This document shows, one piece after another, positions 4,033 to 61,622 of a stretch of DNA of 64,000 nucleotides. The translations under genes were made by a program, and so were the position numbers. Source of the DNA: Acephala macrosclerotiorum (Eukaryota > Ascomycota > Leotiomycetes > Helotiales > Mollisiaceae); contig MU119250.1 in the NCBI GenBank assembly GCA_014904845.1, positions 124,001 through 188,000 on the forward strand, written 5' to 3'. Below the pieces are notes generated by a model. The model made no database searches. It was not told the DNA's origin and saw nothing but the letters and a program-made list of their open reading frames with translations. Numbering within the stretch: the stretch's first letter is position 1; each line of letters starts with the position of its first letter.

Positions 4033-4698
4033 GGAGAAGGTTCATCTTCAGGACATGAGTACACGAAATGTGGGTTCAAGGCTTGGGACAATGGGGTCGA
4101 GGACGGAAATGGCGGGCAGCCAGAGTGGTGGAAGCTATATTTCGGGGCAGTGGAACTCGCTTGCCAGAGTGACGGAACCTGGAGCTGAAGAGAAACCATG
4201 GAATTTCCCAGGATTGAAGGGAGAACGGCGAGGGGTGGTACAAAAAGGCGCCAAACACCACTGAATATCGATACCCTTTAAGTACACAACTGGAAATGAA
4301 ATAAGCATCCAACATCAAAGTCAGATCTCAAGCTTTCTCCTTACGAGGGTGGCAATTACATCGTCGGACAATGCCTTGCCACTTCCAACAGACAGAAAAT
4401 CTACTCAGTATATTCACTCGAGATCGCACCTTGTCAATGTCCCAGACATTTCAGGACAATCAGAAATCTGATTTCATTGCTTTTAGAAAGCTATTGCCCT
4501 CGATAACCTCTATAACCCCCATAACCCCCATACTAGAAAGCCACACTTGGATGTCCCTCGATCTGTGATGCTTTTAGAAGGCTATGTAACCCCTCAGTGA
4601 ACTCCATGCTAGAAAGGAAGCCAGGCTTAGATGTCAACGCTCGAATGGCCTTCGATCTATCGTACATTTCCCACCTCAAATCAAGCGCCCAATTCAAT
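4033..4698. other. convergent intergenic region with one palindrome copy
   Basis: 3' regions of two convergent genes. It holds one copy of the 25-bp palindrome at 4436-4460 and a duplicated phrase around 4490-4620 (CCATACTAGAAAG / CCATGCTAGAAAG with nearby ATAACCTCTATAACC-like text). No supported gene. Confidence 0.5.
4436..4460. repeat. 25-bp palindrome (9-7-9), divergent right arm
   Basis: Left arm AATGTCCCA (4436-4444) is perfect, the loop is 7 nt and the right arm CAGGACAAT differs at three positions from TGGGACATT. Same geometry as the intron copies in the oligopeptide transporter. Confidence 0.6.
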
Positions 4699-15204: not shown

Positions 15205-16725
15205 TTAACTCACCAATGCCAACAGAACACCTCTCAGATACTTCAAAATCCTGACCACAATAAGCCCGAGAGCCACAATCCCCGGCACCAACATACCCCG
15301 CCAAACCAAAACACTTGACTTAGTTATCCATCTAGACATGCTGATTACCAAGAAGACCTCATTGCCGGAAGCGTCCTTCTGCTTCTGAATGCCCCACACG
15401 ATCCCAACTGCAAATATCGTACCCAGGAGACCTATGAAATTTATGTTCCTCCACCCTACAGTAGGAATGGTAACCATTTGACACATGGCTCGATGCTCAA
15501 CAGGTAATGTATTCTCATATCCCTCATAATTTGCAGCCGTACCTCGTACAAAATCGTAAAGATTGAGTTGCATCCTGGCCAGTGACGTCCGAAACATTTT
15601 CTCTGCTTCAACTTGCCATTGTTTTTCTGCTAAGGGCAACGAGAGCATGTGTGCGATCTTTGCTTGGGCGTCCAAGGCTTCGGAACCTCTGAATTGGATG
15701 GATCCTGGAGATGTCGAGTACTTCAAGGCAATAAGAATGAGCCATGTGACGTACTGCGACTTTGATGAGCCCTTGGCGGACTGTTCATTCAGGAGCGAAG
15801 TGATGTTACTATTGTCCCAGCATCGACCGTTCATGCTCTCGCATATTTGGTACTGGTCCACGCAACCGAGAACACCAGCTCGAGTGGAGTTGTTGTAGTA
15901 AAGATCTGGGCCTGGATACCCGTCTGAGAATTGCGCTTTCGTATGAGCGGGGAATACGACGTCGTCTCGGATGCTGGGATAGAAGATGGTATGAGATGAG
16001 ATGAAGGTCAAAGTTACTGGGTAATAGCCAGCAGTGAACTCATTGAGGGGTTGGTATGGACTTGTGTCTGCCTTTGGATCTGACCAGTGGACGCTAACTA
16101 CAATTAGAATTGTTACTGCTAACGGGATTCGAGAAGCTGCAAACCTCGTAGAGTAACCTTTGATCTCCCAAGAACTTTCTTGAACTGGATTCGCTGATGT
16201 GTACGCACCGAGTGACGGCCCGTACCAGTACTCCCACTGTTTCTCGCCTTGCTCTGAAAGACCTACCCTAACATATTCGTCCCCACTGACTAAAGGCGAA
16301 CAAGTCATTGTCCTTCCAAAATAGTACTGATTCTTGGAATTGATACCCAGGACAGACCCCGAGACCAGTCCAGTACTCAGCCGAACGGATCCATTCTGCG
16401 GCGTGTCGCACACCTTACCCTTGAACGGGCATTCCACCGTACTGACAGCGTATCCGATGCTCTGATTGTAAAATCGATTGCAGCTGTTGACCAAAGGGGA
16501 GGAGCCGTAGCAGTCTGTTGCATACACATTTGCTTCGGCCTCTGCCTTATGTTCGTATTCCAGCGATCCAATTGAGGAGTTCGACTCTACAGACTTATAT
16601 CTGCCGCACTTGTCGAAATTCGAAAGCCCAATTGTATCGGTTGCTAGTCCAGCAGAGACTATCGAAGCTACGATCAGCATGATAGGAAGACCAACGATTA
16701 TCAAAACCATGGCAGCTGTGCCGAG
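15205..16725 (-). pseudogene. fungal multi-pass membrane protein, C-terminal part of a gene split by hAT insertion
   Basis: About 506 codons left of the transposon, ending at a stop at 15205. Upstream it continues in frame with 19040-19455 if the element and one copy of the target duplication are removed: the N-terminal part ends in EVLG, the duplication supplies G-T, and this part resumes AAMVLIIVG. It has a membrane segment at its start (MVLIIVGLPIMLIVASIVSAG), then a long extracytosolic region with N-glycosylation sites and conserved cysteines (CYGSSPLVNSCNRFYNQSIGY, VECPFKGKVC, TMTCSPL), then two or three C-terminal membrane segments. This matches a large, unnamed family of filamentous-fungal membrane proteins. 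A stretch near 16100-16150 could be an unspliced intron. Confidence 0.7.
16718..16725. repeat. 8-bp target-site duplication, left
   Basis: GTGCCGAG immediately before TAGGGTTCT. Partner GTACCGAG at 19040-19047 differs by one G/A transition, consistent with RIP or later mutation. Eight bp is the hAT hallmark. Confidence 0.85.
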
Positions 16726-19039
16726 TAGGGTTCTAAAATTATCTGTAATCTTTAAAAATTAGGTCTAATTAGAAAATTAGAGGGTTTAAAAAGTCAAAAA
16801 TTATTATAATTTAGATAGGTCACATGATTTTCTGCCTTAATTACAAGGTTTTCGCACAGTGAAAACTTTTCAAGTTTTTTTACTCTATTTACTATGATTA
16901 CTTTATTAGCTCTTTATATCAACGCTTAGCTCTTATAATAATTAACGATCAGAAGAATTTAGATATTTGAAAAGAGTTTCATAAGATACACGAAGTAAAC
17001 TAGCATAGAAAAATCAAATCGGTTTGGAAATGCAATTATTGCGCTACTAGCAAAAGAGAGTTTACTGAGAATATTACGACATTTAAAGACTATTTCTTAA
17101 AGTGCTTACAGTATCTAAAGTATATAGATGAAATAAAAAGGGACAATTCTATCACAAAAACTAAAGATCAAGTCTCTTATAAGTAGTCGATTTTTATTGC
17201 CGCTTCTCGAATGTTCAAAGAAAAGCGCGAGAATATCAATTTACAGTTTGCTATAGTATTATATATAGGAAATTTTGCTTTTTGCACATTTTACGCTATT
17301 TGAATAAAGAAATTTCTCTTTAATTTGAACTACGAGACTTGAGAACTACTTATTACTATCGATTACTCTATTAAATATCTCGATCAAACATACAATAAAA
17401 TTAAAAAAATTGTCGATAGTACTTTCGTTTCTCTAATTGCAATTGATCAAAAACTCCATTTTATTCTCGATAAATTTATCGATCGCCGCTCTCATCGTAT
17501 AATCAATCTCTCTACAGTTTTTAAATTATTTGATTCTTTTTTTCTTTAGAATAAAAACTCGAAAAATGCGAAACTCGATACTCAATACTTTATAGACTAA
17601 TTCAAATTCGAGACAAAACTATAAATTAGTAGAAACATGAAAATCATTAGTAATATAATTACAAATACGTGTATTATAATGCGTTTATTTTGAGAGTTTT
17701 ACGAGTAGAGTAAAAAGTTTACGCACGTTGTTTTTGCTTCTTACGATTCTTATAAACTTCAACTAATTATTAAAGATTTATATGAATTAGTATAGTTTGT
17801 ATCTATTTTTAATAGAACTCAATTTATTACTCGAGGCTTTTATAAGATTAAAAAGCAATACGCTATTCTTCGCGAGATTCAAAAAGAGATTTACTACAAA
17901 TAATAAGCTTTTATTCTTTCGATTATAACGCGTTAAAGCACTCAATATTATCTCTGTCAATCGATTCTTAAGAATCGCGAAATACTCGAGAAATAAACAC
18001 TACGCAAAAATACATATATAGGCAAAAACAATTCTCAAAAAGCGTTGATTTTAAACGATATATTCTAAGTACAATTTGCTAAACTCTATTAGTTTATTGA
18101 CTCTATCTACGAAATTCAAAAAATATTTGAATCTACGAAATCTATATTCGATTACGTTATTCTACGCTGGAATAAGATTCTTCAAGAATTGAAAATTATA
18201 GTTTTTATAGTCTTTTCTTTGCGCGATTTTATCGATAATACGTTCAAAGCGCGTCGAAAACTATAATTACGCTCAATTTATACTATAGTAATGTTTCTAT
18301 TACTAAAGAATCGAACGAGAGAAATGAACGCTACTATCGACAATATTATTATAGTCTTTCTTTGGAAACGCTACTATTTAAACGAAAAGAAGAAAACTGT
18401 TCACAAATCTTTCTATTTTTTTCGCTATAAACGCGATAATTTCGATATATTAACAGTTTAAATTTACTGCGATGATTTTACATTTTTCTAGTAGACTTTT
18501 CTTTCTATTAAAAACTATAAATTGCTTATTAGAATAGTAATTACGATTTTTGAGACTTTTACCAATTTCGTAGTTTTCGAACGCGCCTTTTTTTGTATGG
18601 AACTAATTATGAATACTTTGCGAAATCGATTTTTCGTTGAACGAGTTACGAAACTAATTTATATTCATATGAATCAACGCATTTTCGACAATAATACTAT
18701 ATTTGCAGATTAGTAAGAAAGCACAAAAAAAGAGAAAGTGAAATTAGAGAAGTTTTTAACTGAGATGAAAGAAAAAGGGGCAAGAGAAAATGAGAAGAAA
18801 AAAGTCTAGAATAAAAAGAATATCGAGCTGAAGGAGGATAACGACGTAGATATAGAGAATATTCCAATTGCTTAGTAAATTGGCCTTGGTTTGAAGTATT
18901 TTGAATGTTTTTTCCGTTTTTAGACTGCTTTATCATTGGATTCACTTTCCATAAGATTAGAACAGAATCAAAAATTACCTTTAATTTAGAGCTTGAAAAG
19001 TTATTCTAAATTTACAACGCGTTAGAATCCAGAACCCTA
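16726..19039 (+). mobile_element. hAT-family DNA transposon, RIP-decayed copy 2 (2314 bp, complete)
   Basis: Both ends are in view: TAGGGTTCT at the left and AGAACCCTA at the right, short terminal inverted repeats of hAT type, flanked by an 8-bp target duplication. The interior is strongly AT-rich and stop-ridden; the plus strand carries the decayed transposase in the same order as copy 1 (BED finger near 16950-17185, then the body). Copy 1 at 1-2092 is the same element inverted. Both copies sit inside host genes: a GNAT gene for copy 1, a membrane-protein gene for copy 2. No intact transposase remains, so the copies are immobile unless helped in trans. Confidence 0.9.
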
Positions 19040-19047
19040 GTACCGAG
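19040..19047. repeat. 8-bp target-site duplication, right
   Basis: GTACCGAG directly after the transposon end AGAACCCTA; see the left copy at 16718-16725. Confidence 0.85.
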
Positions 19048-19455
19048 AACTTCTATGGTATCTCTTTTTCTATGAGGTGCAGCACGTCCCCCGAGAGCAA
19101 TATTGACAAACCCGCCATTAGGAAGGTTTTGAAGGACAATATCAGTCCGTTCCTGCAGATCTTGAGCGTCTTCAAGAGCAGCGGACTGAACATTGGTCCA
19201 TCGCGATGATATCCTGCGCCACAACCAATTGTATGGACCGATCGTCAGAATGAACATCGGTCCACCAACGGAGGTGATCAAGACAGCAATAGTATTCGTA
19301 AGAATACCGGCCCACCAGTCACTGAGAAGGATCTGATATCCTGCAGGAAAAGAGTAAGAAATGGCAGAATGAATAGGGTCTATCGCTCTCTCACTGTTGA
19401 TCGCAAAGCGATTGTAATCTGTCCACAATCCGTGCTTGATCGAATTGGTTGCCAT
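19040..19455 (-). pseudogene. fungal multi-pass membrane protein, N-terminal part of the split gene
   Basis: Begins at an ATG (19455) and runs about 138 codons to the transposon boundary; the frame then reads a few codons into the element and stops at 19012. It has one clear membrane segment (WWAGILTNTIAVLITSVGGPMFILTI, about residues 47-72), followed by W-R-R-I and a cytosolic helix with ALEDAQDLQERTDIVLQNLPNGGF, a pattern shared by this fungal membrane-protein family. The rest of the protein is at 15205-16725. As the transposon interrupts the reading frame, the gene is taken as disrupted, unless the element is spliced out as an intron, for which I see no good splice sites. Confidence 0.75.
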
Positions 19456-19883
19456 GGTCTTGTTGAGATCATGTAGATCAGATAAATCCGAGAAACCGGA
19501 ACTTTAGGGGCAAATTTCATTTTGAGGCCAATTGACAGGCGCAAGGCAGACTGCAGGGCTCTCATAGGAACCGGGCGCGACGTGCCGCTTCATGCAGGCG
19601 CACCAGACGCTCGGCATTCAACGCAACAGGCGCTGACCAATCTAAGAAGCTTAAAGATAAGTACACACATCCAAATTGCAAAAGAAAACTGCAGATGGCT
19701 TATCTCGAAAGTCGGCGCAACAAATAGCTATTTTGGTGTAACAACTTTATCATCACGTGCTTCCCGGCGTCCAACTGCCAGCGACTATCTTTTCAGAGCA
19801 GGAATATCCCTTTACCATTGTTGAACATGCATGAATATTACATCCGCCCTCAACCTCACCAATAGCAAGTCCTGTGAAGGCTC

Positions 19884-20270
19884 TTACCTCCTCGTTGCCC
19901 GGTTATTTCGCGACCAAGACCCTCCGTAATTGCGATGCGAGTTGCCATCTAGGCGATGTGTAAGCTTAAGACCAGGAGTGGCAAGGAAACTGGACAGTAA
20001 ATGTAGGTAATTCTTAGTGGGAAGCAACTTACGGGAATCCGTCCGTTGTTTGTAGGAGGCTCCACTTGCGGGGACGTATGCCTCGCCTTTGGAGCTTCTA
20101 GCAGGCGCTGAGCTCCCGAGAGCACTTCTGTATCGCTCTACTGCACCAATCTGAGGATTTTCCAGTCGAAAATCGTAGTCGTCCATAGTCTCACCGGTGT
20201 TGTGGCAATGCCACAACCCAGCCTCGTCATACTCCCACTCCTGTCCAGCCTCGTCCACGGCGTATAACAT
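19884..20270 (-). CDS. small protein of the YKQRTD family, copy B (100 aa)
   Basis: Two exons on the minus strand, 20270-20033 and 19948-19884, joined over an 84-bp GTAAGT-TAG intron at phase 1. The start is the ATG at 20270; the longer frame upstream has only a GTG. The N-terminal half is acidic (EAGQEWEYDEAGLWHCHNTGE) with no signal peptide. The C-terminal half, YVPASGASYKQRTDS then HGNSHRNYGGSWSRNNR, matches copy A at 14696-14990, with the intron at the same codon. The two lie on opposite strands around the disrupted membrane-protein gene. Function unknown. Confidence 0.65.
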   Translation of the reverse strand: MLYAVDEAGQEWEYDEAGLWHCHNTGETMDDYDFRLENPQIGAVERYRSALGSSAPARSSKGEAYVPASGASYKQRTDSRKLLPTKNYLHLLSSFLATPGLKLTHRLDGNSHRNYGGSWSRNNRATRR

Positions 20271-21591: not shown

Positions 21592-24500
21592 ATGTCTGGC
21601 GCGGCTGAAATCAACGAAGGCGTTGAGCCGTACTCCTCAGACACCGAAAAGCATCCGAAGGGAGCTTCCGATGACGTCCACGAGGCCAATTGGGGAGACC
21701 AGATCTCTCATGAGATGCTCGAGGTGTTGGCGCCCAATGGCGAAGGAGAGCATATCCTCAACATCATCAACAATATGTCGGAGGAGGAGGCTATCGCCAT
21801 TGTCGATGAGTCTGTCAAGTTCCATGCCGAGTAAGGACATTCCAAGATCTTTTGACTCCCTCGTCGAATATTGCGGACGCTACCACATGCTACTTACACA
21901 GCGCCTTTCGAGTTTCCATTGCTATTTATCAGAGGAAATTACACCAATGCGCGCTCTTGCTGACATTCATCTTGCCAGTGATTGGAACTTCCCCACAGAC
22001 ATGAGAGAGCGCATGGTCCGACTGCTGAAAGGCCGAAAGCTATATGGCGAGTACTATGACCGCGATCTGAGAATAGATGCCACCATGATGAGATACTCGT
22101 CTCCCTATCCTGGAGTTCGTGCCGTTGCAGAGCCTCTCGACAACACCGATGTGCCAATTGAAACTTTCCGCGCTTATTTCCTGGGTATTGGGTGGGCTGT
22201 CATTGGAACATTCATGTCGACATTCTTCAACAGCAGATTCCCTTCCATCAGTAAGCACACCCCAGAGTTTTGTTTCCTCGCATTGTCACTTCTAGACTGG
22301 TCGTCTTGAACGGCTAGGCATTGGACGCCAAAAAACGCCACACCCGCTCCAGATTGACCAAACAAGGCTGGGACAATGAAAACATTGAAAACTCAGATCT
22401 GGTATTCTATATAGCTTACTGACATTTGCCATAGGTTTGGGAGGCTCCGTTATTCAAATCTTGCTCTTTCCCTGCGGAAAAACCCTTGCTTTGATCCTTC
22501 CCGATTGGGGCTTTACTGCCTACGGCGTCCGTCATTCTCTGAACCCAGGGCCATGGACTTTCAAGGAGCAAATGTTCGCAACGATTACGTACAATATCGC
22601 GATCTACACTACGAACAGTTATGGAATGATTCTAGTTCAGAAGATGGACGTTTTCTACGGCGAGAAATTCGTGACATTTGGTTACCAGCTGATGTTGACA
22701 TTGTTCGTCCAGCTTATGGGCATGGGTTTTGCAGGATATCTTCGACGCTTCAGTGTCTACCCAGGTACGTCTCTTTTAAATGTTCTAGCAATCTTGGGAC
22801 ATTGAAAGTTGGAAAGAAACATACTGACCCCGGTGCAGTGAAGGCACTTTGGCCCACCATCCTTCCTACCATTGCCATGAACCGAGCACTGACTCGACCT
22901 GAGCCGAAGGAGAACATCAACGGATGGACGATTTCCCGATACAGATTCTTCTACGTATGCGCCTGTAGCATGTTTTTCTACTACTGGCTTCCCGGGTATC
23001 TGTTTACGGCTTTGTCGACTTTCAACTGGATGACCTGGATCAGCCCCAAGAATGTACCTCTTGCAATCCTCACCGGGTCGGAATCTGGATTGGGCTTATT
23101 CAATCCAATTACGACTTTTGATTGGAACGTCGCTACCTCTTCATACGCTGCTCTTGCCCAGCCGTTCTTCGCTACATGCACCATGTATTTTGGTACGTCA
23201 ACTCGTCAATGTCCCAAATCTTCTGGGACATTCTCTGTGCATGAGATAACTCGAAAACTACAATATACTAACACTAATTCATCCTGCAGGCAGTATTTTG
23301 GGTGCCTTCATCATCCTGGGAATATTCTACTCAAACATGTATAACACAGCATACTTGCCCATCAACTCCTCCTCCGCATTCGCAAATGATGCTACCAGCT
23401 ACAATGTTCAGAAGGTAGTTGTCAACAACAAGCTCGACGAGAGTTTGTACCAACAATACTCGCCTCCTTTCTACTCTGCTGGTTATATCCTGACTGTAGG
23501 AGCAAACTTCGTATTCTACCCAGTGTACTTCCTTTACATCATGGTGAACCAATGGAAGACTGTCGGCACTGCCTACGTCGATTTCTACAAGGGTCTGCGT
23601 CATGGCAAAGGAAATTACGAAGGAGCCATGGATGTGCACAGCAGACTCATGTCGAAGTACAAGGAGGTGCCTGATTGGTGGTTCATCTTGATCCTCGTTG
23701 CCGCGATCGTCGTTTCGATTATCTGGTATGTCAACCTTTCACCCCACATCCTTCGATGTCCCAGTCTTCGAGGGACATTATATTCGGCACTCTTCTGACG
23801 AAAGAACCATATATGCTAACATCCACTTTCAGGGCCAAGATTTTCCCCGTTGACACCCCAGTCTGGCTCGTCTTTCTCATGATTGGAATCAACCTCATCT
23901 TCGCCGTCCCTCTCTCCTTCCTGTCAGCAACCACAGGTACGAACTTGGGGCTTGGCGCCTTGATCCAAGTCATCACTGGTTTCGTCCTTCCAAACAACCC
24001 CAACGCCTTCCTCTTCGCTCAAACACTTGGTTCCTGGGCTCTGGCTGGATACGGAGACAACTATGTGCAAGATCAGAAGATGGCTCATTACTGCAAGATC
24101 GCTCCAAGAGCTGTCTTCAGAAGCCAGATTGGGACGATCATCATCACTTGCTTCGTGGCGGTGGGAACGCAGGACTTCATTCTTACGAACGTCAAGGGTC
24201 TTTGCACGCCTGATCAGCCTAGCAGATTCACATGCGTAAGTGTCACCTTCTCAAACAGCCATCTTATCTTTGCTATTTGGTGGCTTTCTCCCAGACATAT
24301 GAATGTCCCAGTAATCTTGGGACATTAAGCCCTACTCTTCGACGAAATCTGTAAGCTAACTTCTTTCAGGCGAATGACGGCTATCCGCTGTATGCCAGCT
24401 CTCTGATGTGGGGCCTCCTCGGATCAGATCGCATGTTCAACTCCCTCTATCCCCTCTTCAAATGGTGTTTCCTAATCGGTTTCGCCATCTCTCTCGTCTT

Positions 24501-24969
24501 CCTCGTCGGCCAGGGTTACGGTCCAAAGTACCTTCCAGGTGTCAAAGAGAAACTTCGAACATCCCTCCGCCCTCGGACATTCGAGATCCTCGACCGCACT
24601 TTATTCCCCTTCATCGCTTCCCTCCTCTGGCTCAACCCCATCTTGGTCATTCAAGGAGTACAGCACTGGGCACCATCCAACTTGTCGTATAAGACTCCGG
24701 GCATGATCTTGAGTTTTATATTCATGTATTGGTTGCCGAGGCATAGGTTAGCTTGGTGGGAAAAGTATAACTATGTCCTGTCTGCGGCGTTGACGGCTGG
24801 TGTGGCGGTTAGCGGGTTAGTGATGTTCTTTGCGGTTGGGTATAATCCGAAAAGTTTGAAATGGTGGGGTAATACTGTTTCTGGAGCTGGTGTTGATGGT
24901 GCTGGGAAGGGTATTTGGGCTCTTCCTGTGAGGGGATACTTTGGTCCTGAGAAAGGAAGCTTCCCTTAG
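21592..24969 (+). CDS. oligopeptide transporter, OPT family (877 aa)
   Basis: Seven exons: 21592-21830, 21979-22250, 22435-22764, 22839-23192, 23290-23725, 23833-24235 and 24370-24969; frame closes at 877 aa, normal for fungal OPT proteins. Family motifs are SPYPGVRAV...PIETFRAYFLGIGW (about residues 119-150) and HYCKIAPRAVF (about 627-637, a variant of the KIPPR motif), with many membrane segments between and after. OPT proteins move tetra- or pentapeptides or glutathione-like peptides by proton symport, usually at the plasma membrane; the substrate is not predictable here. All donors are GTAAG or GTACG/GTATG type. Five of six introns (2-6) contain a copy of the 25-bp palindrome. Confidence 0.93.
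22353..22377. repeat. 25-bp palindrome in OPT intron 2 (degenerate left arm)
   Basis: Arms ATTGACCAA and TGGGACAAT around a 7-nt loop; 6 of 9 and 8 of 9 positions match the consensus arms. Confidence 0.5.
22779..22803. repeat. 25-bp palindrome in OPT intron 3
   Basis: Arms AATGTTCTA and TGGGACATT with loop GCAATCT; right arm perfect. Confidence 0.75.
23208..23232. repeat. 25-bp palindrome in OPT intron 4 (perfect arms)
   Basis: AATGTCCCA, loop AATCTTC, TGGGACATT: a perfect 9-bp stem. Confidence 0.85.
23755..23779. repeat. 25-bp palindrome in OPT intron 5
   Basis: GATGTCCCA, loop GTCTTCG, AGGGACATT; one mismatch per arm against the consensus. Confidence 0.8.
24302..24326. repeat. 25-bp palindrome in OPT intron 6 (perfect arms)
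   Basis: AATGTCCCA, loop GTAATCT, TGGGACATT: a perfect 9-bp stem. Confidence 0.85.
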
Positions 24970-27993: not shown

Positions 27994-29990
27994 TATCCCT
28001 TCAACGGCCGCAGGGAATTTTAGCGTGTGCACGGGCCACACCCCTAGAACACCAAAATCCTGAATGTAAACAATCTCATAAACAATCTCTTATTTTGCAT
28101 GATTCTACTTATAATATGTCTCTAAGAGCTACTAAAAATGTAGTATCTGACTCTACAGACTTTGCGACAAAACGTTTTAACTTTCTCTCTGCGCAAAAAA
28201 CAAGTTTTGCTTTTCTAGGCATGAAATTACTTGATTTTCCCCCTAAAATCAATCTATTTACTACTGCACAATCTTTAGATCCATAGAGCATCTTTAGATT
28301 GTTTATATCTACTGAAATAATCATAACTATTGTCTAATACACCAATAAAAGAGTATTACAGTTTGTCACAAACGACTTAAAATTCCAGACTAGACTGAGA
28401 AATTAAAAGCCAATTACGTGTGAAAAAATATATGCTTACATTAGTATTAGAATTTATATAGGACTCTATTCTACGTCTTCTGAGAAAGATTACTGGTCTA
28501 AAGAAATTGATAGACTTGATTATTTATTAAAGAATATTATGTTTTTAAAGAAATATAAAGTAATCCATACTAGAATGCGTATTGCAACTGCAGATTCTAA
28601 TACCGAGTTTGACGCTGTTTTTGAGAGAGTAAAAATATACTTTCTAATGTTTAGTAGTATACTAACAATTCTATAGTTAGAGTCTTTAAATACTCATATT
28701 ATAAATATTAGTTTAAAGCTTTGAACGCCAAAAAAAGACTTTGCAATTGATGAAATAATGTGCTTTTTCCAAAGGAGATCTTTTGATACTCTTGTTATTC
28801 CAAGAAAGTCTATTAATGAGAGCTACAAAGTCTGGATTGAAACTCAACGAAAATATTTCTTAGTTTGAGTGTTTTATTGCAAAAAGAAAATCAAAGACAA
28901 AAGTAAAAGAGAACCCTTAGAACCTTACAAAATCAAGCAATTTAAAGAGCTTGGAAAAAACAATTCTTTAGTTGTAGTAGTAGAATTGTCTAGTAAGCTC
29001 CCTAGAACAAACTACATCTTTTACTTAGACAATTTGTTTACTAATGTCAAGTTATTAAAGTACATAAGAAACAGAAAATATAGAGTAATTAGTACGTGCA
29101 CTTCTAGATTAGAGATTTTAGTTGATTTTTGTGACAAGAAAGCAAAAAATGCTAAAAAAAATGAGATACTATAAAGCACTTTATTTCATAAATTCTCAGA
29201 GAACGACAAAATACAATTTGTGGCATGGAAAAATAATACACTAATCTTATTTATGACTACTGTTGAAAGGGAGCTTGAATTGATGAAAAGACAGAGAAAG
29301 CGATTCTCAGAGACTTCAAGCTCAATTAAGACAGCAAGACAACCTTTTAAAGATAATCTTACAGCTATACTAAAGATCTCTGTCCTTGATAACAAGTACA
29401 ATCACCAAATGAGAACCGTAAATCGAAAGAATCAACTCAAAGCGAAGTACAGTTTTTAAGAGCTTCACAGAAGAAGTAAACACCATTCTTTTATTACGTG
29501 GCTTCTAGAGACAGCCTTAGTCAATTTTTACTTATTGTCTTATTATTCTCCAATTCCAAAGAATCAGAAGTTCACAAATCATAAAGTATTTAGAAAAGTA
29601 GTCATTTCTCAATGTTTTAATATAAGCAAATCTAGCAAAAAGAAAAAAAAAAAAAGCTCTATTTATACTCTAAAGATACTCTCGCTTGAAGTGTCAATAG
29701 AGTCTCATAGGCTTGTTTATAGAGAAAAAAAAAGTGATTGCATAGTATGCAAAAAAAGAGTAAAAAAGAGAGCTTTGAGAGAAATCTCAACTAATAAGAG
29801 AAGCTGTGAGTACAGGAAAAGAAGTGTGTATAGATGCGAAGAGTGTGAAATGCCTTTTTGCAAAGAAAGAACATGTTTTAATAGGTTTCATGCCCTAGAA
29901 TCAGAGTAATAAGAATATATCCTCAGATCTAGTGAAATAAAAAGTGCTAAGACGCTAAAATTCCCTGCCGAGCTGGCCGTTCAGGGGATA
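27994..29990 (+). mobile_element. piggyBac-like DNA transposon, decayed (about 2.0 kb)
   Basis: Terminal inverted repeats: left TATCCCTTCAACGGCC then GCAGGGAATTTTAGCG (27994-28025 region); right, read inverted, TATCCCCTGAACGGCC, a 7-nt insertion, then GCAGGGAATTTTAGCG. The plus strand carries a stop-broken piggyBac transposase, including the C-terminal cysteine-rich domain. AT bias and in-frame stops fit RIP decay. A TTAA target duplication, typical of piggyBac, is not visible at these ends, so the exact boundaries are uncertain by a few bases. Confidence 0.75.
28869..29909 (+). pseudogene. piggyBac transposase, C-terminal half, broken by stops
   Basis: Three consecutive frames separated by stops read like one protein. 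First is a catalytic-core piece with IFYLDNLFTNVKLLKYIRNR, the piggyBac D-N-x-F-T motif (28869-29174). Second is DNKYNHQMRTVNRKNQLKAKYSF, equivalent to the D-x-YNxxMGGVDLxDQ motif with the key aspartate region altered (29220-29459). Third is an RRSKHHSFITWLLETALVNFYLLSY piece and a C-terminal cysteine-rich domain with C-x2-C, C-x2-C and C-x4-C pairs (29535-29909). Upstream decayed sequence from about 28095 is likely the N-terminal half. Nonfunctional. Confidence 0.75.
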
Positions 29991-30466
29991 CTTATCTCAG
30001 TCGTGGGTGCAATCAATGTCAGGCGAAATTGTCAGATGCTGACGTCAAGAAGGTTTTCACAGCAAACACCGGCAAAACTGTCAATTTCTCGAAAGAAGTT
30101 TTCCTGAAAGGAAACCCGCGATCATAATATACAACCTACTGCTGCAGCTCCATCCAGCTCTCAATGTTCGGTAGGGCCTCGTACTCTACGACCCAAAACA
30201 TCGCGAGCCTTGCTCTACCTTTATCATCGGCGCGTCCAAACTGCTCTATTCCCTTCGTCCTAAAGCCGCCTTCTCAAGACGCGAATCATAACTCGCGCTT
30301 CTCTTGACTTGCAATCAGTGTCTTCAACTACGAGGTCAAAAGCATCCCTTCAAGACCCAATACCGGATCGCTACATCCTCGCAATCTTTCGATAGAACTT
30401 TATGATCGAGTCGGGTCATAGCTCGACGGCACAGGACAGAGCAGAAAATTACAGGGGCGCATTCCA

Positions 30467-30792: not shown

Positions 30793-31074
30793 CGAGTCTG
30801 GGATTATAAATCTGTGTTTTACAAGGCTCTTCGGGCCTTCTCGCTAATAAATAAACGCTAAAACTAAATTTCGATTTTTAATTACAAAATTAAATTAACT
30901 CAAATTTGTTTTATAAACTTTTTATAACTTTTTATAAATATCGTAATATAAGTTTAAATAATTCTAATTTATGCGTATTTTACACTTTTAAAGTAAACCC
31001 ATCGAGTTTAGTTTTCGTCGCTTAAAAATGTTTTAAAAATACTTAGAAAATACAGACTGATAATCCCAGGCTCG
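30793..31074. mobile_element. 282-bp AT-rich MITE with 23-bp inverted ends
   Basis: Left end CGAGTCTGGGATTATAAATC then TGT and inverted right end CGAGCCTGGGATTATCAGTC then TGT; interior very AT-rich with no coding capacity. TTA occurs immediately outside each end (30790-30792 and 31075-31077), suggesting a 3-bp TTA target duplication as in PIF/Harbinger-type MITEs. C/T differences between ends fit RIP. Confidence 0.7.
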
Positions 31075-32996
31075 TTAGGTTCGTTGTTATAACGGAAGAA
31101 CTAGTCTTTATAAATGCAACTAAAAACGATTAAAAGACATTTGTTTCTTCGTTGCCCCGACGGTGCAAGGTGTAGCATCGTAGCTTTATTACAAAAATCA
31201 CAGATCTATCTAGGATCTAGTTGTGTAGGACCTTCATCTAGATTAAGGATGGTATCAGTTGCCTTCCAGGACATTTAGACATGCCGTCGAAATAGTTCTA
31301 GTCGACGGAATCTCCGTATGCTTGCAGTCGTAATCTAACCTCAAGCTTCAACTCTGCAGTCAGAGGTTGTGCAAAGGGAATACCAACTTCCTGACCTGTT
31401 GCTGGAGTCATATTAATGAGGGTTGCAGATGTATGCCCAATCGACGAAGGGTTCGCGGGTGATTGGTGCCTTCTTGACAAAATGGACTGGTGCGGAGTTA
31501 GAGCATGGTGAATAGTGCCCAGATGGAAGGTATATTAAACGTGCAGCCGGCAAAGGGTGCAAGCCAATGAGAGAGCTGCGAAAAGGGTTTAGCGAATGGC
31601 AGAGCCCAAGCAGCCCCGCAAAAGCATCAAAACTAAAGCAATACCAGAGACCAGGGTTCAAGCGACTTGAGGTTTGAAAACCAAAGCATTTTAGTTGTAG
31701 GGAAGCAAACCCCCAATTCTTGCGGGTGAGTAGCGAAGTCTTGATTGAAGCTATTCTATATTAAGTTCTACTCACTCTACTATCCTTCTTATCACTCTAT
31801 CTACCACTCTACTGCTATTCACTATCCTCCCCATTACTCCATCTACCACTCCACTGTTATTCTCGCAGCCCTTTGCCTTTCGGAATCTGCAAATCCAGAG
31901 TACTGACTCCTCTAAGTCCTTTAAGTCCTCTACGTCCAAGTTATGTGTGTGTGTGTGTGATGGAGGGAATCGAGGGAAGAGGCATTCAAGTAGTAGCTCG
32001 AAAAATTCTATAAGATAATTAGTATATAACCCGATCGAAGGAAGGAGGAACTTGCAACTTAAAAGACTAAAGGATTAGTATCGAGAAGCAGAAAAAAAAG
32101 AAGGGACTTAAGATATAAATCTTGAAGTTTATAGGCTATTTTTAGAATTATAAGGGCAAAAGAGCCAATTTACAAGGGCCTTTGTAGTGGGAGGGTCTTT
32201 TGAGTCAAAAACTCCTGATTTTTCTTCGAAGTCTGTCTTAGGTTTGCATAAACCTAAAATTTTTGGGGCTAGCGGCATTTTTTTTTTTTTTTACACATTT
32301 TCGAGCTCAGCAAGTAAGTCTATGCTTATCAAAATCTAGTTGGTGGCTGTATACCCTGTACTTTGGGTTTGAAACCCCTGTCTTTGGGTTTGGTGCTCTT
32401 GTAGGGAGCGATGATGCGCAGGTGAACTCGGGAAGCGCGGATGTGCGGTAGAGCAGAAGATAAATCCCGCTGATGTAGGCGATCGAGGGTACGGCGAGCT
32501 TCCTGAATCAATCCAGCAAGAGTTCAATATGAGGATATGAACTGGCGCGGAGAGGGACTGGCGTCGAGATGGATTGGTGCGGAACCGGGTGAGCGAGCGG
32601 AGTGACGTAGGACTCGGGAGTGCTAGGGTATTCGACTCAGAGATAGACTGAAGACTTCGTCGCGGCATAGACTCCTCGAGGACTTGAGATCTGAGTCGGG
32701 GGTGAATAGTTTGAGGTGGATTCAACTGCTAGACGGACGACTTTAGCATTGTGAATCTGAGGCATACGCTTTATTAGGGTGGTCACGTGTTTATGTTATA
32801 TATATCCTCATCTCACCGCTAGACAGGAAGATACATCATGAACACACACTTTACACCCACACCATGGCCTTTGCCTGTGATATTCTTGAAGATATATAGG
32901 CCCCAATGCTTGAAAGACATCGTTTACAATAGCTTACAACTTTATCAGTACCTTGGAACAACCAGATGGATCCCCATACTAACCGAAGATTGAATC
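31075..32996. other. 1.9-kb region of simple repeats and gene debris
   Basis: Contains pyrimidine-rich degenerate repeats of ACTCTATCTACCACTCTACT type at about 31760-31860, a (GT)n run near 31944-31959, a poly-T run at 32278-32292 and repeated CTTTGGGTTTG phrases near 32360-32390. A minus-strand frame ending at 31298 (EVGIPFAQPLTAELKLEVRLRLQAYG) looks protein-like but has no partner exon. No gene is supported. Confidence 0.45.
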
Positions 32997-37848: not shown

Positions 37849-38565
37849 AATGACGGACAATGACAATTGCAAAATGTAAATGAGGCTGCGTAGTGGTGAC
37901 GGAGAACCTCGGAAGAGTTATTCATCACGTGCAGTAGCCGCGAGATCTCGAAGTGGCTCTGCTTGCTAAAGGATAATGGTGAAAGAATCCACAAAGGACT
38001 CGTAGTGTGATACCAACTTAGGAATTTAGGAGGTATGAGAGATGCTCTTGGGATAATGTCGCAGCAAAGCAAAGTTTGCAGAAGAGGTTGGGTTACTCGC
38101 GGAATGACCTAAGCGGCAGCCCTTCGGAGAGCCTGCGATGTGGCTGCAGGATCCTCATATTCATTCGCACGCTTAATGTCTGACGAGGCTGTGTATCAAA
38201 TTTATGCGACCTGTGGGAGGGATTGAAGCATGAACAGCAAACACATGAGGCTGAGCTACACTAGGGTGTCATCGTTCCATGACGTCTCCAACACTTTGAC
38301 AACTCATGATTCTTCTATACTCTCGCTATATGATGCAATCTGAGTACAGTATGTATAGCTGTCAATGCTATTTCAACAAAACGAACGAAATCGAGGACTG
38401 GGCTCAGTGTTAGGAGGCCCTAGCCTTTGCATCGAAAAATTCGTCGCTGAAGCGAGTCCGGAGGGACGATCACGAAGACAGCGGTCAAAGTGAAGATTTC
38501 CTCCTTTATGCGATACAGTTGTATCCAGTGAAGAGAAATGGAATTTCGATGAAGAATCGTATTTT
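37849..38565. other. intergenic spacer between paralogues P and Q
   Basis: About 720 bp; 3' region of Q and promoter of P. No other gene supported. Confidence 0.4.
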
Positions 38566-41500: not shown

Positions 41501-43390
41501 GTTCTGACCCTAGATATGGAGCCGAATCTCAAGCTGAATGGCCGCCCTCCTCGGCCTCCTCGCCCGAGGACACTGGTAGTAGATGAATTAGATGTGACAA
41601 GGTCGGAGATACCGTAAGGGGGGAACTCCTTTGGTTTTCTACTCTCATATAGCCCTGCTACTGCAGCGCCTGCGAGACCTACACCTGCGATTTCGGTACC
41701 GCCTCTGACTCTGGATCTCGACCTTTCTTCTGACCGCCTGCGGGATCTGTTTCGAAAATGCTCTGTAACACCGGCAACTGAGGCTGTAGCAGCGCCAGCT
41801 TTTGTGATTCTGCTTCTCGCACGAGCCCAACGATCATCATGATCATCATCAGAGTCGTAATCATCGCGATACTGGACCCAACGTATTGGCGGGCTTCGGG
41901 TTCGGCTCCGGCCTCTATCAACTTCCTTCTTGTTTGTTTCACAATTCGCAACATATTTTGCAGGCGAAGCAGCGATCCCAGCACCAGCTAAACTGAGAGC
42001 AATCTTGAGCTTTGGGGGTAAGCTTCTAGATCTCGACCTTGATATAGATCCGTGACGTTGTCTAGATCTAGATCTAGACCTCCACCTTGATCTGGATCGA
42101 CTTCTGTCGTCTCGATTTTCACCATACCGACTTCTAGCTCTTGTGAGAACCTCGGCGCCGATAGCTCCCAAGGCTATGCCTCCACCTTGCTGGTAGGCTG
42201 TGGCGTGGTTGAATACAGGTGCACAGCCGTATTGGATCATTCCTAATTCGGGGTCAACGCCAGGATCAGAATATGTGCCAATAGATCTGGCTCTCGACCG
42301 ACTTCTGCGTCGGTCCTCTCGAGCATCTTTCCTTCCTCTTCTACTCTCGTACGCTCCAGCCACCGCGGCACCTGCGAGACCTGAATAGACGGTGTCGGTG
42401 CCAGCTCCGATGTCTTTCATTTCATTTTGTTTTCCCTCTGTAGCCTCGATCAGTATGTCTCATCTAAGCATTTCAAAGGGAGAGCAAAATACCCCAGCAG
42501 TCTTGGGACATTCAGGGCTCTGGGAACAAACAGAGAAGAAAGGGGAATATTGCTACGAAATGTGAGACTTACTCCCTCGCTCCGCTCTGTGGCTTGCCAG
42601 CAATGCAGTTGCTCCCGCACCAGCCAATGCCCCTTCTGCTAGATGGCTTTTGTGACTTGGGCTGTAACTCCGGCTGCTTTCTCTTCGGATGATCTTCCCC
42701 CTAATTTTGCCTCTCACTCGGGTACGACTTGGAGAGCGTCTTCGTTCGCCTGAGTTTAAAGATGAGTGTTCACGGACGTCTCGTCGGTAATAGTATTCCT
42801 CGTCGTCGCTATCTCTTCGCGGGATTACCATTGGAGGTGGTTTCGGAGCCTCTTGCACGATGATCTGCTGAGGTTCGGGAGCCCTTTCGCGAATAACGAT
42901 AGGTTGTGGGAGCATTTCTGGGCGACTGTAATACTCTGTCTCTCGTTCATACATCTCGCGAGGGTCGCGCCATTGCCCCGTTGGAGGTAGCCCACGTTCC
43001 AGTGATCTTGATCGTTCTCTTTCTCGCTCATAGAGTGCCGTTCTTCTGTTTTCTCGCTCACGTTCTGGATATCTCCTTTCAACATACTCGTCATTCATAG
43101 AGGAAGCACGCATGTCAATGGCGGACCGGGGTCTCCCAAATCGTTCATATCGTTCAAAGTCCCCGCGCTCATCACCAGGATATCTGTGTTCAACTTCTTC
43201 GACTCGGCTTGGTGTCACTCGGTAAGGGCGTACTCCTCCTTATCAGATCCATGGTCTCGTTATCAGAGAAGCTCGGAGACTTACCTCCCTTTGTTAATTT
43301 ATCCGACTCTTCCTCTATATCAGAGTCAAAATCATCTTGCCTGTCATCACGATAACTGGTCCTATATGCTGATTGTGTAGAGTCGGCCAT
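38566..43390 (-). CDS. large fungal protein: DUF3824/RS-rich N-terminus plus conserved C-terminal core (paralogue Q, 1530 aa)
   Basis: Four exons on the minus strand: 43390-43285, 43235-42573, 42437-40833 and 40784-38566; frame closes at 1530 aa. The N-terminal 250 residues are Arg/Glu-rich, then come two DUF3824-type pieces (HLAEGALAGAGATALLASHR; VYSGLAGAAVAGAYESRR with DPGVDPELGMIQYG) and long Arg-Ser repeats. A helical segment SAENYLKENWPEIFDVLLRGL ends exon 3, as in paralogue P. Exon 4 is the conserved core: SCWYDLFPGYVLASGHAIRP, GIGLEIAF, LVFDASQEIGWYLPQTSVIL and CLVFGNSKEQKCSE, colinear with P. Intron 2 (42438-42572) contains a copy of the 25-bp palindrome. Likely intracellular; role unknown. 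The shared core and swapped heads suggest domain shuffling after tandem duplication. Confidence 0.82.
42488..42512. repeat. 25-bp palindrome in intron 2 of paralogue Q
   Basis: Plus-strand arms AATACCCCA and TGGGACATT with loop GCAGTCT; the gene is transcribed from the other strand, so orientation relative to the intron is opposite to the OPT copies. Confidence 0.7.
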
Positions 43391-48133: not shown

Positions 48134-48158
48134 AATGTATGGAATGGGGTGGGACATT
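48134..48158. repeat. 25-bp palindrome, left arm half-decayed
   Basis: AATGTATGG, 7-nt loop, TGGGACATT; right arm perfect. Just downstream of the haspin stop codon. Confidence 0.45.
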
Positions 48159-48334
48159 ATGGGAGGGGTGTGCATATGGGGCGTTTCTTTGAGTTCATGC
48201 ATTGGGATGGAGCGAGCATACCAAAATTACCGAAGCACCTGGGGCATTCTGACGTAGGGCGCCTAGAAGTTGATGCATAGCAAAGGGCGTTGAGAAAATG
48301 ATGATACCATCCATGATTTCATATCTTGCACTTG

Positions 48335-48359
48335 AATGTCCCAGATAATTAGGGACAAT
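48335..48359. repeat. 25-bp palindrome, downstream of haspin
   Basis: AATGTCCCA (perfect), loop GATAATT, AGGGACAAT (two mismatches). Intergenic between convergent genes. Confidence 0.75.
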
Positions 48360-48467
48360 GAAATGTGGAGAAAATATAGTGAATTTCAGTATGGACGCTT
48401 GCTCGGATCGAATCAGTAACTTCCGAAATTTAAGTCTCCAAGATCAACCTCACAAAGTCCCAGAGTT

Positions 48468-49865
48468 CTAGGTACAATCACAAACATCCACGTTCCCAAC
48501 GACTACTCCCAATAGATCGTTCACCTCCCAGCCAACAATAGCCCCAGCAATAACCTTCATCAGGATCATACCCTCTAATCCCCCCCTCACCTCCTCAACT
48601 CTCCTTCTATACTTCTCATCTTGAAGAACCTCCAAAACGGACTCTCTCATAGCCCCAGGCCTCGGAGTCCCAGTCCTAAGGTTAATACCAACACCAGACC
48701 ACTCAACCCGATCCGCGATATCTCTCTTATCAGCAAATAGTGGCGCTGCAACCACGAGGTAAAATGCTTTCGAGACTGCGTTCTGAAAACTTCCATAGTC
48801 ACCATTCGTTACGAACACATCGGAGACTTCGAGGTCGTCGAATGGGATCCAATCCGCCACCCTCGTATTTCCCTGAACCATAAACTCTTCTGGAAGACTA
48901 GCACCTTTCTTCCCCAGCGCGACGAGGACAAGAATGTCTAGCTCGTTTCGGAGGGCGTTGAGTGTGGGGATGATGAGGTCTGTACAGTTCAAAGCCATAC
49001 TGCCTTGAGAAACGGCTATCACTCGTTTCCTCTCCCCCCTTCCCTTTCCAGAATTCTGGACGATTTCTTCCCACCATTCAGGAAGCTCGTTTGCCGACTT
49101 AGTAGTCATTGAATGATCTCGGGGAAGTCCACCAGTAAACTTTAGCGAGGGCGGGATATCAGAGCGCGAGTATTCAAGACTAGGAGGACAGAGCTGAAGA
49201 AATATATCTGAGAGTGAGATGACCGCGTTGTGTCTGCATTCCTCAGCCACCCTTGCTCCCAAGCTGGTTAGAGCGTTGTTGAGCTCTGTCTGCATTGAGG
49301 ACCACAGAGAGAAGTATGTTCTATTCAACTCCTCGTTTCGTTCTCGGCCAAAGGGAGAAGAGGGAGGAAGTCTCCCCGAAGCTGGAGGCGCGGTGTCGAC
49401 GCCGAGAGATAGGATGGGGAAGATCCCTACCTGCATGACGCCGTTTGGTCGATATCCTGGTGCGCCGAGGAGAATTGGAAGTGCACCATGGAACTCGGGA
49501 GGATGGTGATGGGTTTGAGGGGTCGTTGGCAAGGTTTGAAGAGATGATTGATTGGATGGCTTTAAGTTGAGCTGGTATCGTTTTGATGAAGAAGGTTGTT
49601 ACATTCCAGTTTGCTCGTGCGTAGGGGTCTGTTAGTGCGCCTTCACTGTTCTTAGCGAGAGTGCCGTCGTGGAAGTCTTGCCATCCTGATGGTTCCATGA
49701 ATGAAGCTCCGATTCCTCGACCTTAGAGTGAATATGGCTGCTGGTGATGAATGTCACTTGATATGCTAGATCAACTAGGTGTTGTGCAATTGTTCGCATT
49801 GGTGTGAAGTGGCTGACGAAGGGCCTGGAGCAGACTACAACATGAGCTTTCACAGTTGCAGCCAT
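48468..49865 (-). pseudogene. UDP-glycosyltransferase (GT1-like) with two frameshifts
   Basis: Minus-strand gene from ATG 49865 to a stop at 48468. The product pieces match fungal GT1/macrolide-type UGTs: N-terminal HVVVCSRPFVSHFTPMRTIAQHL, a central EFHGALPILLGAPGYRPNGVMQVG, and the C-terminal donor-site half VIAVSQGSMALNCTDLIIPTLNAL, ADWIPFDDLEVSDVFVTNGDYGSFQNAVSKAF and RVEWSGVGINLRTGTPRP. The three pieces lie in three different frames. One shift occurs near 49711-49718 (a base is missing in GAG-GAATCGG) and one near 49492-49520. No intron fits either place. Enzymes of this type glycosylate sterols, lipids or phenolics. Either a recent pseudogene or sequence errors; two independent shifts favour the former. 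Confidence 0.75.
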
Positions 49866-60366: not shown

Positions 60367-61622
60367 TCAGATGTGGTCCCGAGTATCGAAAGTTCGACCG
60401 AGTCGGCACGTGATAGGTTGCTGTCTCGCCGTAGTCCACTGCTCCGTACCCGTGTACCATCCCTCCTTAATCAACATCTCCTCGGTCTCCTTCCAATACG
60501 GTCCCTTATCTACACTCTTAACGTCCAAATCTCCAATCCTAGCCTCAATCATTTCCTCATCGTCCTCTCTATCCTCCGGAAAGCGAACAAACATTGTGCA
60601 ATCCCTCAAAGTCATGGCAACGCGATATTTCCAATCCTTAGCATCAGCTTTCAACGGACCGAGCTTATCGAGTCTTGACTGAACTTCCTTGAGCCGAGTT
60701 AGGAGGGGATTGTTGAAGATCCACTTAGCGAAGCGATCGACGTTGGCTAGTTTTCGCTCAGGGGCAAGGAGGATTTTGGCTGCGTAGAGAGCGTCTTTTT
60801 CGACACCGGAGACGAGATCGAGAGGGCAGTATGCCTTGAGAAGCTCTTCGGGTGGGTATTTCGTAGCGAGCTCTTGGTTGCGGCAAGCTGTAATGGCACA
60901 CTGGCGGCAGCGCTTGGAGTTCTTTGGAGCGGAGGGTGATTGGGAGAGCCATTTGGGTTTGAATTCGATTACTTCTGCATCTCCTTGGCCGACTGAGGAT
61001 ATTAGCTCGAGGTAAAAGGGGTAAGCGAGGGGGTAATGTACCTGGAGACATGTCTGTAACCAAGAGACCGTGCTCATCGTTGGCTAAGTAGACTCCACGT
61101 CGCTTGATGGGACGCAGCGAGATTTTCCCTGGAATTGGGGCTGAGGTTTGTGCATCTTTGATTTGAAGCTCCTCGTTCAACCTCTCAATGACTTTGCCGG
61201 GGCCGAGTCTAATGAGTTGTTGGTGTACAATTTGGTCATCCTTGAAGAGCGGCTTGACCCATCGTTCCCACTGGTCTTGGGCAATGGCTACGGCGAGGGT
61301 AGTTGGGAGATCCTTGCGGAGTCGGAGGAGCTTGTCTACTACAGGTCAGAACGCGTCGTTTTCAATATCCCAAGCCGGCTGGGACTTTCAAAAACTTACT
61401 ATCAAAGACGTCCAGGTCCATCTGGTCTCCATCATCGTCCTCAATGATGGTTGGTGGCGGGGTGGTTGAGGAGTACTCTTCTTGGAAGCCGGGCGTAGGA
61501 GTTGGATATCGGGGACGGACAATGTAGACAATATTGGCCGCTCCTTCAGTGAGATACACTAGCTGGGCATCTTCTGGGACAAACGGAATATCTGTCTTTG
61601 TTTCAGACGCCATCGTTGCCAT
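60367..61622 (-). CDS. IPK1: inositol-pentakisphosphate 2-kinase
   Basis: Three exons on the minus strand: 61622-61400, 61338-61042 and 60992-60367; introns 61 and 49 bp; frame closes at 381 aa. ATG at 61622 is the first in frame. Family motifs: an N-terminal nucleotide-binding strand VYLTEGAANIVYIVRPRYP with the G-x-x-N signature; VIHQQLIRLGPGKV; ISLRPIKRRGVYLANDEHGLLVTDMSP; the diagnostic VIEFKPKWLSQSPSAPKNSKRCRQCA (E-x-K-P-K plus the R-C-x-x-C zinc/inositol site); and CPLDLVSG. The enzyme phosphorylates inositol 1,3,4,5,6-pentakisphosphate at the 2 position to give phytate (IP6), acting in the nucleus in mRNA export. Divergent from MDM34, 709 bp away. Confidence 0.93.

What the first reader, a model, noticed from the sequence alone, without database searches (positions are those of the whole stretch)
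22353..24326. A 25-bp palindrome of fixed 9-7-9 geometry in five of six introns of one transporter gene
Introns 2-6 of the OPT gene each hold one copy: 22353, 22779, 23208, 23755 and 24302. The arms approximate AATGTCCCA and TGGGACATT; the loop is exactly 7 nt each time although its sequence varies (GCAATCT, AATCTTC, GTCTTCG, GTAATCT). Two copies are perfect. Exons of the same gene lack it. Arms are conserved while surrounding intron sequence is not, so this is either selection for an RNA hairpin or a recently spread mini-element that tolerates intron insertion. Introner-like elements with stable hairpins are known from other fungi; I do not know this motif to be described.
Basis: seen in the sequence. 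Interest (0 to 1): 0.88.

Follow-up and report, generated by a model that had tools for sequence, protein, structure and literature searches.

The report
Genome-wide DNA palindrome in fungal introns
A 25-letter mirror-image DNA motif seen in one fungal transporter gene's introns turns out to recur about a thousand times in that fungus, behaves like a protein-binding site rather than an RNA hairpin, and also sits at the centre of a family of copy-and-spread introns.

Summary
Introns 2-6 of a six-intron oligopeptide-transporter gene each carry the 9-7-9 palindrome (two perfect copies; the intron-2 copy has 4 mismatches). Genome-wide, AATGTCCCA-N7-TGGGACATT with up to 3 mismatches occurs 1,032 times against 8 for the reversed control. 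Spacer 7 is strongly preferred, though 8 (185 copies) and 6 (125) also exceed control. By a home-made gene finder, introns are enriched and exons depleted. RNA-hairpin selection is not supported: paired arm positions vary independently, and sense-strand G-U and A-C departures are equal (20 and 20). Flanks of 175 fetched copies are no more alike than random DNA, so most are not recognisable pieces of one element; OPT introns 4 and 6 have no relatives in the genome. Yet the genome holds an introner-like element of about 140 nt, with at least 29 matches at 72-92% identity, one an intron of another window gene. The palindrome is the tip of its end-to-end inverted symmetry. Best reading: a two-fold-symmetric DNA site kept by selection, probably bound by a dimeric protein not identified here, which an introner-like family also carries. 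Rival: the copies are tips of long-decayed introners. Host: a relative of Phialocephala subalpina.

The parts
21592..24969 (+). OPT-family oligopeptide transporter gene, 877 aa, 6 introns (21831-21978, 22251-22434, 22765-22838, 23193-23289, 23726-23832, 24236-24369)
   Evidence: hand-spliced open frame; best database relative a Phialocephala subalpina protein, 95% by BLASTP, 97% in the alignment; relatives carry Pfam PF03169
22353..22377 (.). palindrome copy in intron 2, 4 mismatches, 57 nt before the 3' splice site
22779..22803 (.). palindrome copy in intron 3, 2 mismatches, 35 nt before the 3' splice site
23208..23232 (.). perfect palindrome copy in intron 4, 57 nt before the 3' splice site; no similar sequence to this intron found elsewhere in the genome
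23755..23779 (.). palindrome copy in intron 5, 2 mismatches, 53 nt before the 3' splice site
24302..24326 (.). perfect palindrome copy in intron 6, 43 nt before the 3' splice site; no similar sequence to this intron found elsewhere; its score to the introner-like profile (18 bits, palindrome included) is no better than that of a bare palindrome such as intron 4 (17 bits)
42438..42572 (-). full-length introner-like element acting as a predicted intron of the gene at 38304-43600; its palindrome is 42488-42512
   Evidence: genome-wide DNA search with a family majority sequence hits 42450-42572 at E 3e-26, 83% identity; gene model; open spliced frame
61364..61388 (.). palindrome copy, 2 mismatches, in a predicted intron (61336-61399, minus strand)
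4436..4460 (.). palindrome copy, 3 mismatches, in a predicted minus-strand intron 4401-4546 with a poor donor
48134..48478 (.). run of four copies (cores at 48136, 48226, 48337, 48456), 90-119 bp apart, in the gap between two convergent reading frames that end at 48117 (+) and 48468 (-); the first two are weak (scores 12.7 and 12.4)

Best explanation
The palindrome is a DNA-level, two-fold-symmetric recognition site: two half-sites (consensus TGGGACATT) facing each other across a 7-bp spacer whose sequence matters little. Shown: about a thousand strict copies, strongly preferred spacing, independent variation of the arms, no RNA pairing signal, flanks no more alike than random DNA, few neighbours closer than about 60 bp, and (by my gene finder) concentration in introns and depletion in exons. 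Inferred: a homodimeric DNA-binding protein recognises it and selection keeps the arms. Five copies in one gene then reflect a high site density in that gene's non-coding DNA (5 copies in 744 bp of introns). Also shown: an introner-like element of about 140 nt has this palindrome at the tip of its inverted symmetry. Inferred: the element carries the same site, either captured or needed for its spread.
For: 1,032 sites at up to 3 of 18 mismatches against 8; 315 at up to 2 against 0. At one variable pair, C-G / one-arm T / both-arm T-A counts are 28 / 20 / 4, and my hand calculation for independent arms gives 27.8 / 20.5 / 3.8. None of 14 pairs in 211 profile hits exceeds reshuffled partners by more than about 1.1 sd. 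Sense-strand G-U 20 and A-C 20 in 36 predicted introns. Inverted half-site pairs in the fetched sequences: 124 at spacer 7, next best 6. Flank similarity of 175 copies equals random positions: 39 against 48 pairs at score 24 or more, 3 against 1 at 28 or more. Neighbour spacing: of 64 gaps under 200 bp, 1 is under 60 and 30 are 97-125. In the window, not chosen for the motif by me, TGTCC-N11-GGACA is the strongest 5-base dyad, 5 against 0.05 expected (at 4 bases some AT-rich dyads rank above).
Against: No binding protein is identified and no relative's genome could be compared, so selection is inferred only from pattern. Spacers 6 and 8 are well above control, looser than expected for a rigid dimer. 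In 24 introns without introner similarity, 10 copies lie 50-59 nt before the 3' splice site against 2.6 expected (P 5e-5, interval chosen after seeing the data); a plain protein site does not predict this but the introner geometry (59 nt) does. Flanks of 187 copies lean slightly towards the introner profile (mean score -25.1 against -29.7 at random positions, 12% above the control's 95th percentile). Unpaired half-sites are also in excess over shuffles in the window (53 half-sites against 20 at the strictest cut, with 7 pairs among them). Arms were used to find most copies, so apparent arm conservation is partly ascertainment; among 26 copies aligned as introner-like (20 found by similarity over the whole element, 6 first found by their arms) arms are only slightly better kept (0.85) than the loop (0.76) and sides (0.75, 0.81). 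The flank profile was made symmetric by construction, so it is no evidence for symmetry.
Confidence: 0.45

Rival explanations
1. Tips of decayed introner-like elements. All or most copies descend from successive families of hairpin-shaped mobile introns that share this tip; the rest of each element has decayed beyond recognition. OPT introns 2-6 would be old introner gains.
For: An introner-like family with this tip exists: 29 genomic matches at E up to 0.001, 72-92% identity, 26 of them over 100 nt long; its centre is the palindrome and its consensus folds end to end at -52 kcal/mol. The palindrome-to-3' splice site distance is 59 nt in the family and 50-59 nt in 10 of 24 introns without family similarity. 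Scarcity of neighbours under about 60 bp would follow from 70 nt of element on each side. Flanks lean slightly towards the family profile, and spacers in predicted sense introns fit the family's spacer better in sense than antisense, -2.94 against -4.19.
Against: Flanks of 175 copies do not resemble each other beyond chance, and only 12 of 192 copies score 6 bits or more against the family's sides. The best-fitting orientation agrees with gene strand in only 15 of 28 introns. OPT introns 4 and 6 have no relatives, and OPT intron 6 scores no better against the family profile than a bare palindrome. Of 155 copies not called intronic, branch-site positions show no clear peak; an AG-after-branch-site count has small bumps at 58-65 (8) and 90-97 nt (9). 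The family's inner arm base is G in 14 and A in 8 of 25 while the common motif has A, though the search pattern had A there.
Confidence: 0.3
2. RNA hairpin selected in the transcript, for example to help splicing by shortening introns.
For: Perfect pairing in two OPT introns; intron enrichment; stable fold of the introner consensus.
Against: No compensatory change beyond independence; A-C breaks as common as G-U; in the introner family, pairing equals shuffled controls for the tip (78.6 against 78.9%) and for the whole hairpin (78.5 against 78.3%); RNAalifold finds no shared structure; 53 of 90 copies lie outside predicted genes.
Confidence: 0.07
3. A recently mobile mini-element of about 25-35 bp that inserts into introns and intergenic DNA.
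For: Dispersed, clustered, short, palindromic.
Against: Spacer sequences differ among copies while arms match; no excess of target-site duplications of 3, 4, 5, 6 or 8 bp in 131 copies.
Confidence: 0.08

Closest known systems
Introner-like elements of Dothideomycetes (Collemare et al. 2015, PMC4457414: abstract and passages seen; van der Burgt et al. 2012 recalled, seen only as a citation)
   Same: The family found here: similar introns at many unrelated positions, mostly bounded by GT and AG, longer than ordinary introns, decaying in place.
   Different: Different sequence and fungal class (Helotiales relative). Its centre matches a motif that occurs about a thousand times, mostly without the element. 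Some copies show no usable intron or fit one only on the opposite strand.
Symmetrical stwintrons and cropped sister introns of Hypoxylaceae (PMC8469720, abstract and passages seen)
   Same: Proliferating introns with end-to-end inverted symmetry around a central short palindrome.
   Different: Their palindrome is 10 nt, TTTCTAGAAA; no genome-wide independent occurrence is reported in the passages I saw, and they state that their copies work only on the coding strand.
Introners in diverse eukaryotes (Gozashti et al. 2022, PMC9860276, passages seen)
   Same: Mobile introns; ascomycete families described there as lacking terminal inverted repeats and target-site duplications.
   Different: Here the consensus of the whole element is an imperfect inverted repeat, with a centre shared by many other loci. 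Target-site duplications of the element were not tested.
Bacterial REP/REPIN palindromes (PMC3116915, PMC2817692: search listing and start of abstract only)
   Same: Many short dispersed palindromes outside coding DNA.
   Different: Eukaryote; spacer and flanks unrelated between copies; no associated transposase was sought.
Plant auxin response factor inverted repeats, TGTCNN with 7-8 bp spacing (recalled, no call)
   Same: Two TGTC half-sites facing each other at near-fixed spacing, bound by a dimer.
   Different: Plant-specific proteins; the spacing measured between hexamers here is 9 bp, so not a member.

Membership tests
Introner-like element (the family including window 42438-42572) | Similar intron sequence at many unrelated gene positions | tested here: met
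   29 matches, best E 2e-46; unrelated flanks by eye in 26 aligned copies
Introner-like element (the family including window 42438-42572) | Element ends coincide with splice sites and splicing leaves an open frame | tested here: met
   13 of 25 copies within 3 nt at both ends, against 4 of 1,000 random segments; 3 more, the window copy among them, have the acceptor 7-10 nt off the aligned end; 1 fits only on the opposite strand; 8 doubtful or without a fitting intron; flanks of about 80 bp only
Introner-like element (the family including window 42438-42572) | Internal inverted symmetry | tested here: met
   consensus folds end to end, -52 kcal/mol; single copies -22 to -41, not compared with shuffles
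Introner-like element (OPT introns 2-6) | Similar copies elsewhere in the genome | tested here: not met
   introns 4 and 6 match only themselves at E up to 1; introns 2, 3, 5 not searched genome-wide
Selected RNA hairpin | Compensatory changes or G-U tolerance in arms | tested here: not met
Miniature inverted-repeat transposable element (the bare palindrome) | Target-site duplications | tested here: not met
   131 copies, no excess at 3, 4, 5, 6 or 8 bp
Dimeric DNA-binding-protein site | Two-fold symmetric half-sites at fixed spacing, arms independent | tested here: met
   but spacers 6 and 8 also exceed control
Dimeric DNA-binding-protein site | A protein that binds it | not testable with these tools
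   no binding data available
Known structured RNA family | Match to an Rfam family | tested here: not met
   no match up to E 1 at the OPT gene or E 0.5 in four loci

The most novel reading that the evidence does not exclude
The dyad is the handle by which fungal introners move or are tolerated: a nuclear protein binds the palindrome, and introner-like elements spread because their symmetric centre is that site, so that the site links intron gain to a sequence-specific DNA-binding factor acting across the whole genome.
Probability: 0.14. Interest if true: 0.9.

Novelty: new variant of a known kind. Interest (0 to 1): 0.62.

Why it matters
How fungal introners spread is debated, and ascomycete families have been described as an outlier without DNA-transposon marks (passages of PMC9860276). 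A defined 25-bp site that forms the centre of an introner-like family and also occurs about a thousand times, mostly on its own, gives a concrete sequence to test for a binding protein. It also shows that a palindrome in introns need not be an RNA hairpin.

Tried and rejected
RNA hairpin: rejected by arm independence, by G-U/A-C equality and by covariation counts on the introner family. Mini-transposon with target duplications: no excess. Longer hairpins around the bare palindromes: no signal, but the test had no power, because recognised introner copies showed none either. Hidden splice-signal geometry around copies not called intronic: nothing clear. Promoter-only site: unlikely, as a run of four copies lies between two convergent reading frames and others are in introns. 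Rfam: nothing. An iterated nucleotide profile absorbed palindromes on both strands and was replaced by one built from 25 aligned copies. I first counted OPT intron 6 as family-like on the strength of that iterated profile; against the later profile it is no better than a bare palindrome. Phasing of spacings at 10.5 bp: p about 0.05, not pursued. Papers: eight searches. Only searched for letters of the motif; its 17 listed papers look unrelated by title and none was opened, so absence from print is not shown. 'Introner' with 'Leotiomycetes' gave one paper, not read. Passages of four papers were seen, and the outline and abstract of one of them.

Limits: gene models come from my own small gene finder with recalled splice consensus, and intron/exon tallies depend on it. 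The fetched loci were chosen because they hold the motif or the element; the profile was trained on them and on the window. No relative's DNA was available. Genome match counts are stated by the tool to be lower bounds for repeats.

Full report
What is there. The window lies in a fungal genome of 69.66 Mb in 778 contigs. The gene in question encodes an 877-residue oligopeptide transporter with six introns, spliced by hand to an open frame. Its best relatives are from Phialocephala subalpina (95% by BLASTP, 97% in the alignment) and another Mollisiaceae fungus (92%, 94%), so the host is probably a close relative of those fungi. Eight window matches at up to 3 mismatches compare with 0.03 in shuffles.

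Genome-wide. TGTCCCA-N7-TGGGACA with up to 2 mismatches has 1,024 sites against 77 for the pattern read backwards. The 18-base form has 1,032 against 8 at up to 3 mismatches and 315 against 0 at up to 2. Being palindromic, each site is found once on each strand; these are single-strand counts. Of 41 exact-arm pairs at spacers 0-30, 28 have 7, but spacers 8 and 6 also exceed control, 185 and 125 against 8 and 11 at up to 3 mismatches. A profile trained on the fetched loci and the window finds 27 sites above score 12 in the window against 1.55 in simulated sequence, so weaker copies are common. The window holds nine copies at up to 2 of 14 mismatches where the genome average would give about one (my arithmetic), so it is a dense region.

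Where the copies lie. With a home-made gene finder, 26 of 90 copies in 62 sequences (61 fetched loci and the window) fall in introns, 11 in exons and 53 elsewhere, where introns, exons and the rest are about 11%, 35% and 54% of the bases. At least one of the 11 'exonic' copies, that of OPT intron 3, is in an intron missed by the finder. In the window alone, at score above 16, there are 9 in 9.1 kb of introns, 2 in 27.7 kb of exons, 3 in 7.6 kb upstream, 2 in 5.7 kb downstream and none in 12.5 kb far from genes. A rule using splice signals only gives 22% intron-like among 107 copies against 9% at 456 random positions at the strictest setting, and 56% against 43% at the loosest. Runs of copies occur at about 110 bp pitch, for example L044 988-1305 and 48136-48456, the latter between reading frames that end at 48117 (+) and 48468 (-). 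Of 64 neighbour gaps under 200 bp, one is under 60 and 30 are 97-125.

Not an RNA hairpin. At one variable pair, exact counts are 28 unchanged, 20 changed on one arm, 4 changed on both, which is what independent arms predict. In 211 profile hits no pair shows more Watson-Crick matches than reshuffled partners by over about 1.1 sd. In 36 predicted introns, sense-strand G-U and A-C departures are 20 and 20. There is no excess of target-site duplications. The averaged flank profile, symmetric by construction, has T-rich positions 14-17 bp and weak A/T at 24-26 bp from the centre and, apart from one isolated deviation at 93 bp, nothing beyond. A hand tally of the 40 one-mismatch sites listed (the list is cut short) shows position-specific tolerance: 12 changes at the inner A, 1 at the middle C, and only A-to-T or T-to-A at two outer positions (3 each). 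That is unlike plain mutational decay, but the numbers are small.

An introner-like family with the same centre. Several palindrome introns looked alike end to end. A DNA search with their majority sequence finds 29 matches, the best at E 2e-46, 72-92% identical, 26 of them over more than 100 nt, one being window 42450-42572. Aligning 26 copies with flanks shows homology bounded by GT and AG in most, with unrelated flanks, by eye. Leaving out OPT intron 6, 13 of 25 copies fit an intron within 3 nt of the element's ends with an open spliced frame, against 4 of 1,000 random segments; three more have the acceptor 7-10 nt off the aligned end; L082 fits only on the opposite strand; eight are doubtful or fit none. 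The consensus folds end to end at -52 kcal/mol with the palindrome at its tip, single copies at -22 to -41. Pairing in the family equals shuffled controls, and RNAalifold predicts no shared structure, so the symmetry looks inherited and not maintained after insertion.

How the two relate. Only 12 of 192 copies have flanks scoring 6 bits or more against the family; of 384 flank orientations, 5 and 8 score above 10 with the left and right profile, against none in swapped controls. Flanks of 187 copies (seven family-like ones left out) lean slightly towards the family (mean -25.1 against -29.7 at random positions), but the better orientation agrees with gene strand in only 15 of 28 introns. Among 175 copies (nine family-like ones and the loci of the 8-copy module left out) flanks are no more alike than random positions. 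OPT introns 4 and 6 have no relatives at E up to 1, and OPT intron 6 scores no better against the family profile (18 bits) than the bare palindrome of intron 4 (17 bits). So the palindrome behaves mostly as a short independent motif, and the introner family carries one. Against that, in 24 palindrome introns without family similarity the motif lies 50-59 nt before the 3' splice site in 10, against 2.6 expected (P 5e-5, interval chosen after seeing the data), and the spread is narrower than random (P 9e-4); the family's own distance is 59. From 37 introns (36 plus OPT intron 3) I dropped 13: six family-like introns (L060, L067, L074, L017 second, L018, L075) and seven with poor models (L025 twice, L029, L030, L079 second, window 4438 and 46019). 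The OPT intron 2 distances are from hand splicing. These leave decayed introners as a serious rival.

Verdict. A two-fold-symmetric DNA site, probably bound by a dimeric protein and kept by selection, explains the class as a whole best (0.45). Tips of long-decayed introners come next (0.3). The presence of five copies in one gene is then a matter of local density. The combination with an introner-like family is what makes it worth following.

Noticed in passing
L009 1499-1643, L010 435-578, L052 990-1089, L054 975-1100, L062-L065: A separate dispersed non-coding module, 8 genomic matches at 76-100% identity, whose homology begins at the palindrome and runs about 100-145 bp; it contains an ACTGATAAGGAT motif twice, in direct order in some copies and inverted in others.
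   Followed up: partly
L082 82-219: An introner-like copy that fits an intron only on the strand opposite to the family's sense (GTAAGT...TTAG, open spliced frame), suggesting that the symmetric element can work in either orientation.
   Followed up: partly
L073 333-467, L083, L087, L088, L091, L094, L097, L098: Introner-like copies for which no convincing intron fits; some may lie outside genes or be decayed.
   Followed up: no
window 30834-31079: Dispersed repeat, 77% identical over 247 bp to L015 156-401, near an AT-rich block (28000-30000, 31% GC).
   Followed up: no
window 1-2000, 16000-20000, 28000-30000: AT-rich blocks (GC 0.29-0.38) where most 2-kb blocks have 0.46-0.52, perhaps mutated transposon remains.
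   Followed up: no
window 32997-43600: Two adjacent minus-strand genes whose predicted proteins look like paralogues (translations, by eye).
   Followed up: no
L042 993 and 1082: Two palindrome copies 89 bp apart with nearly the same immediate flanks, apparently a small tandem duplication (by eye).
   Followed up: no
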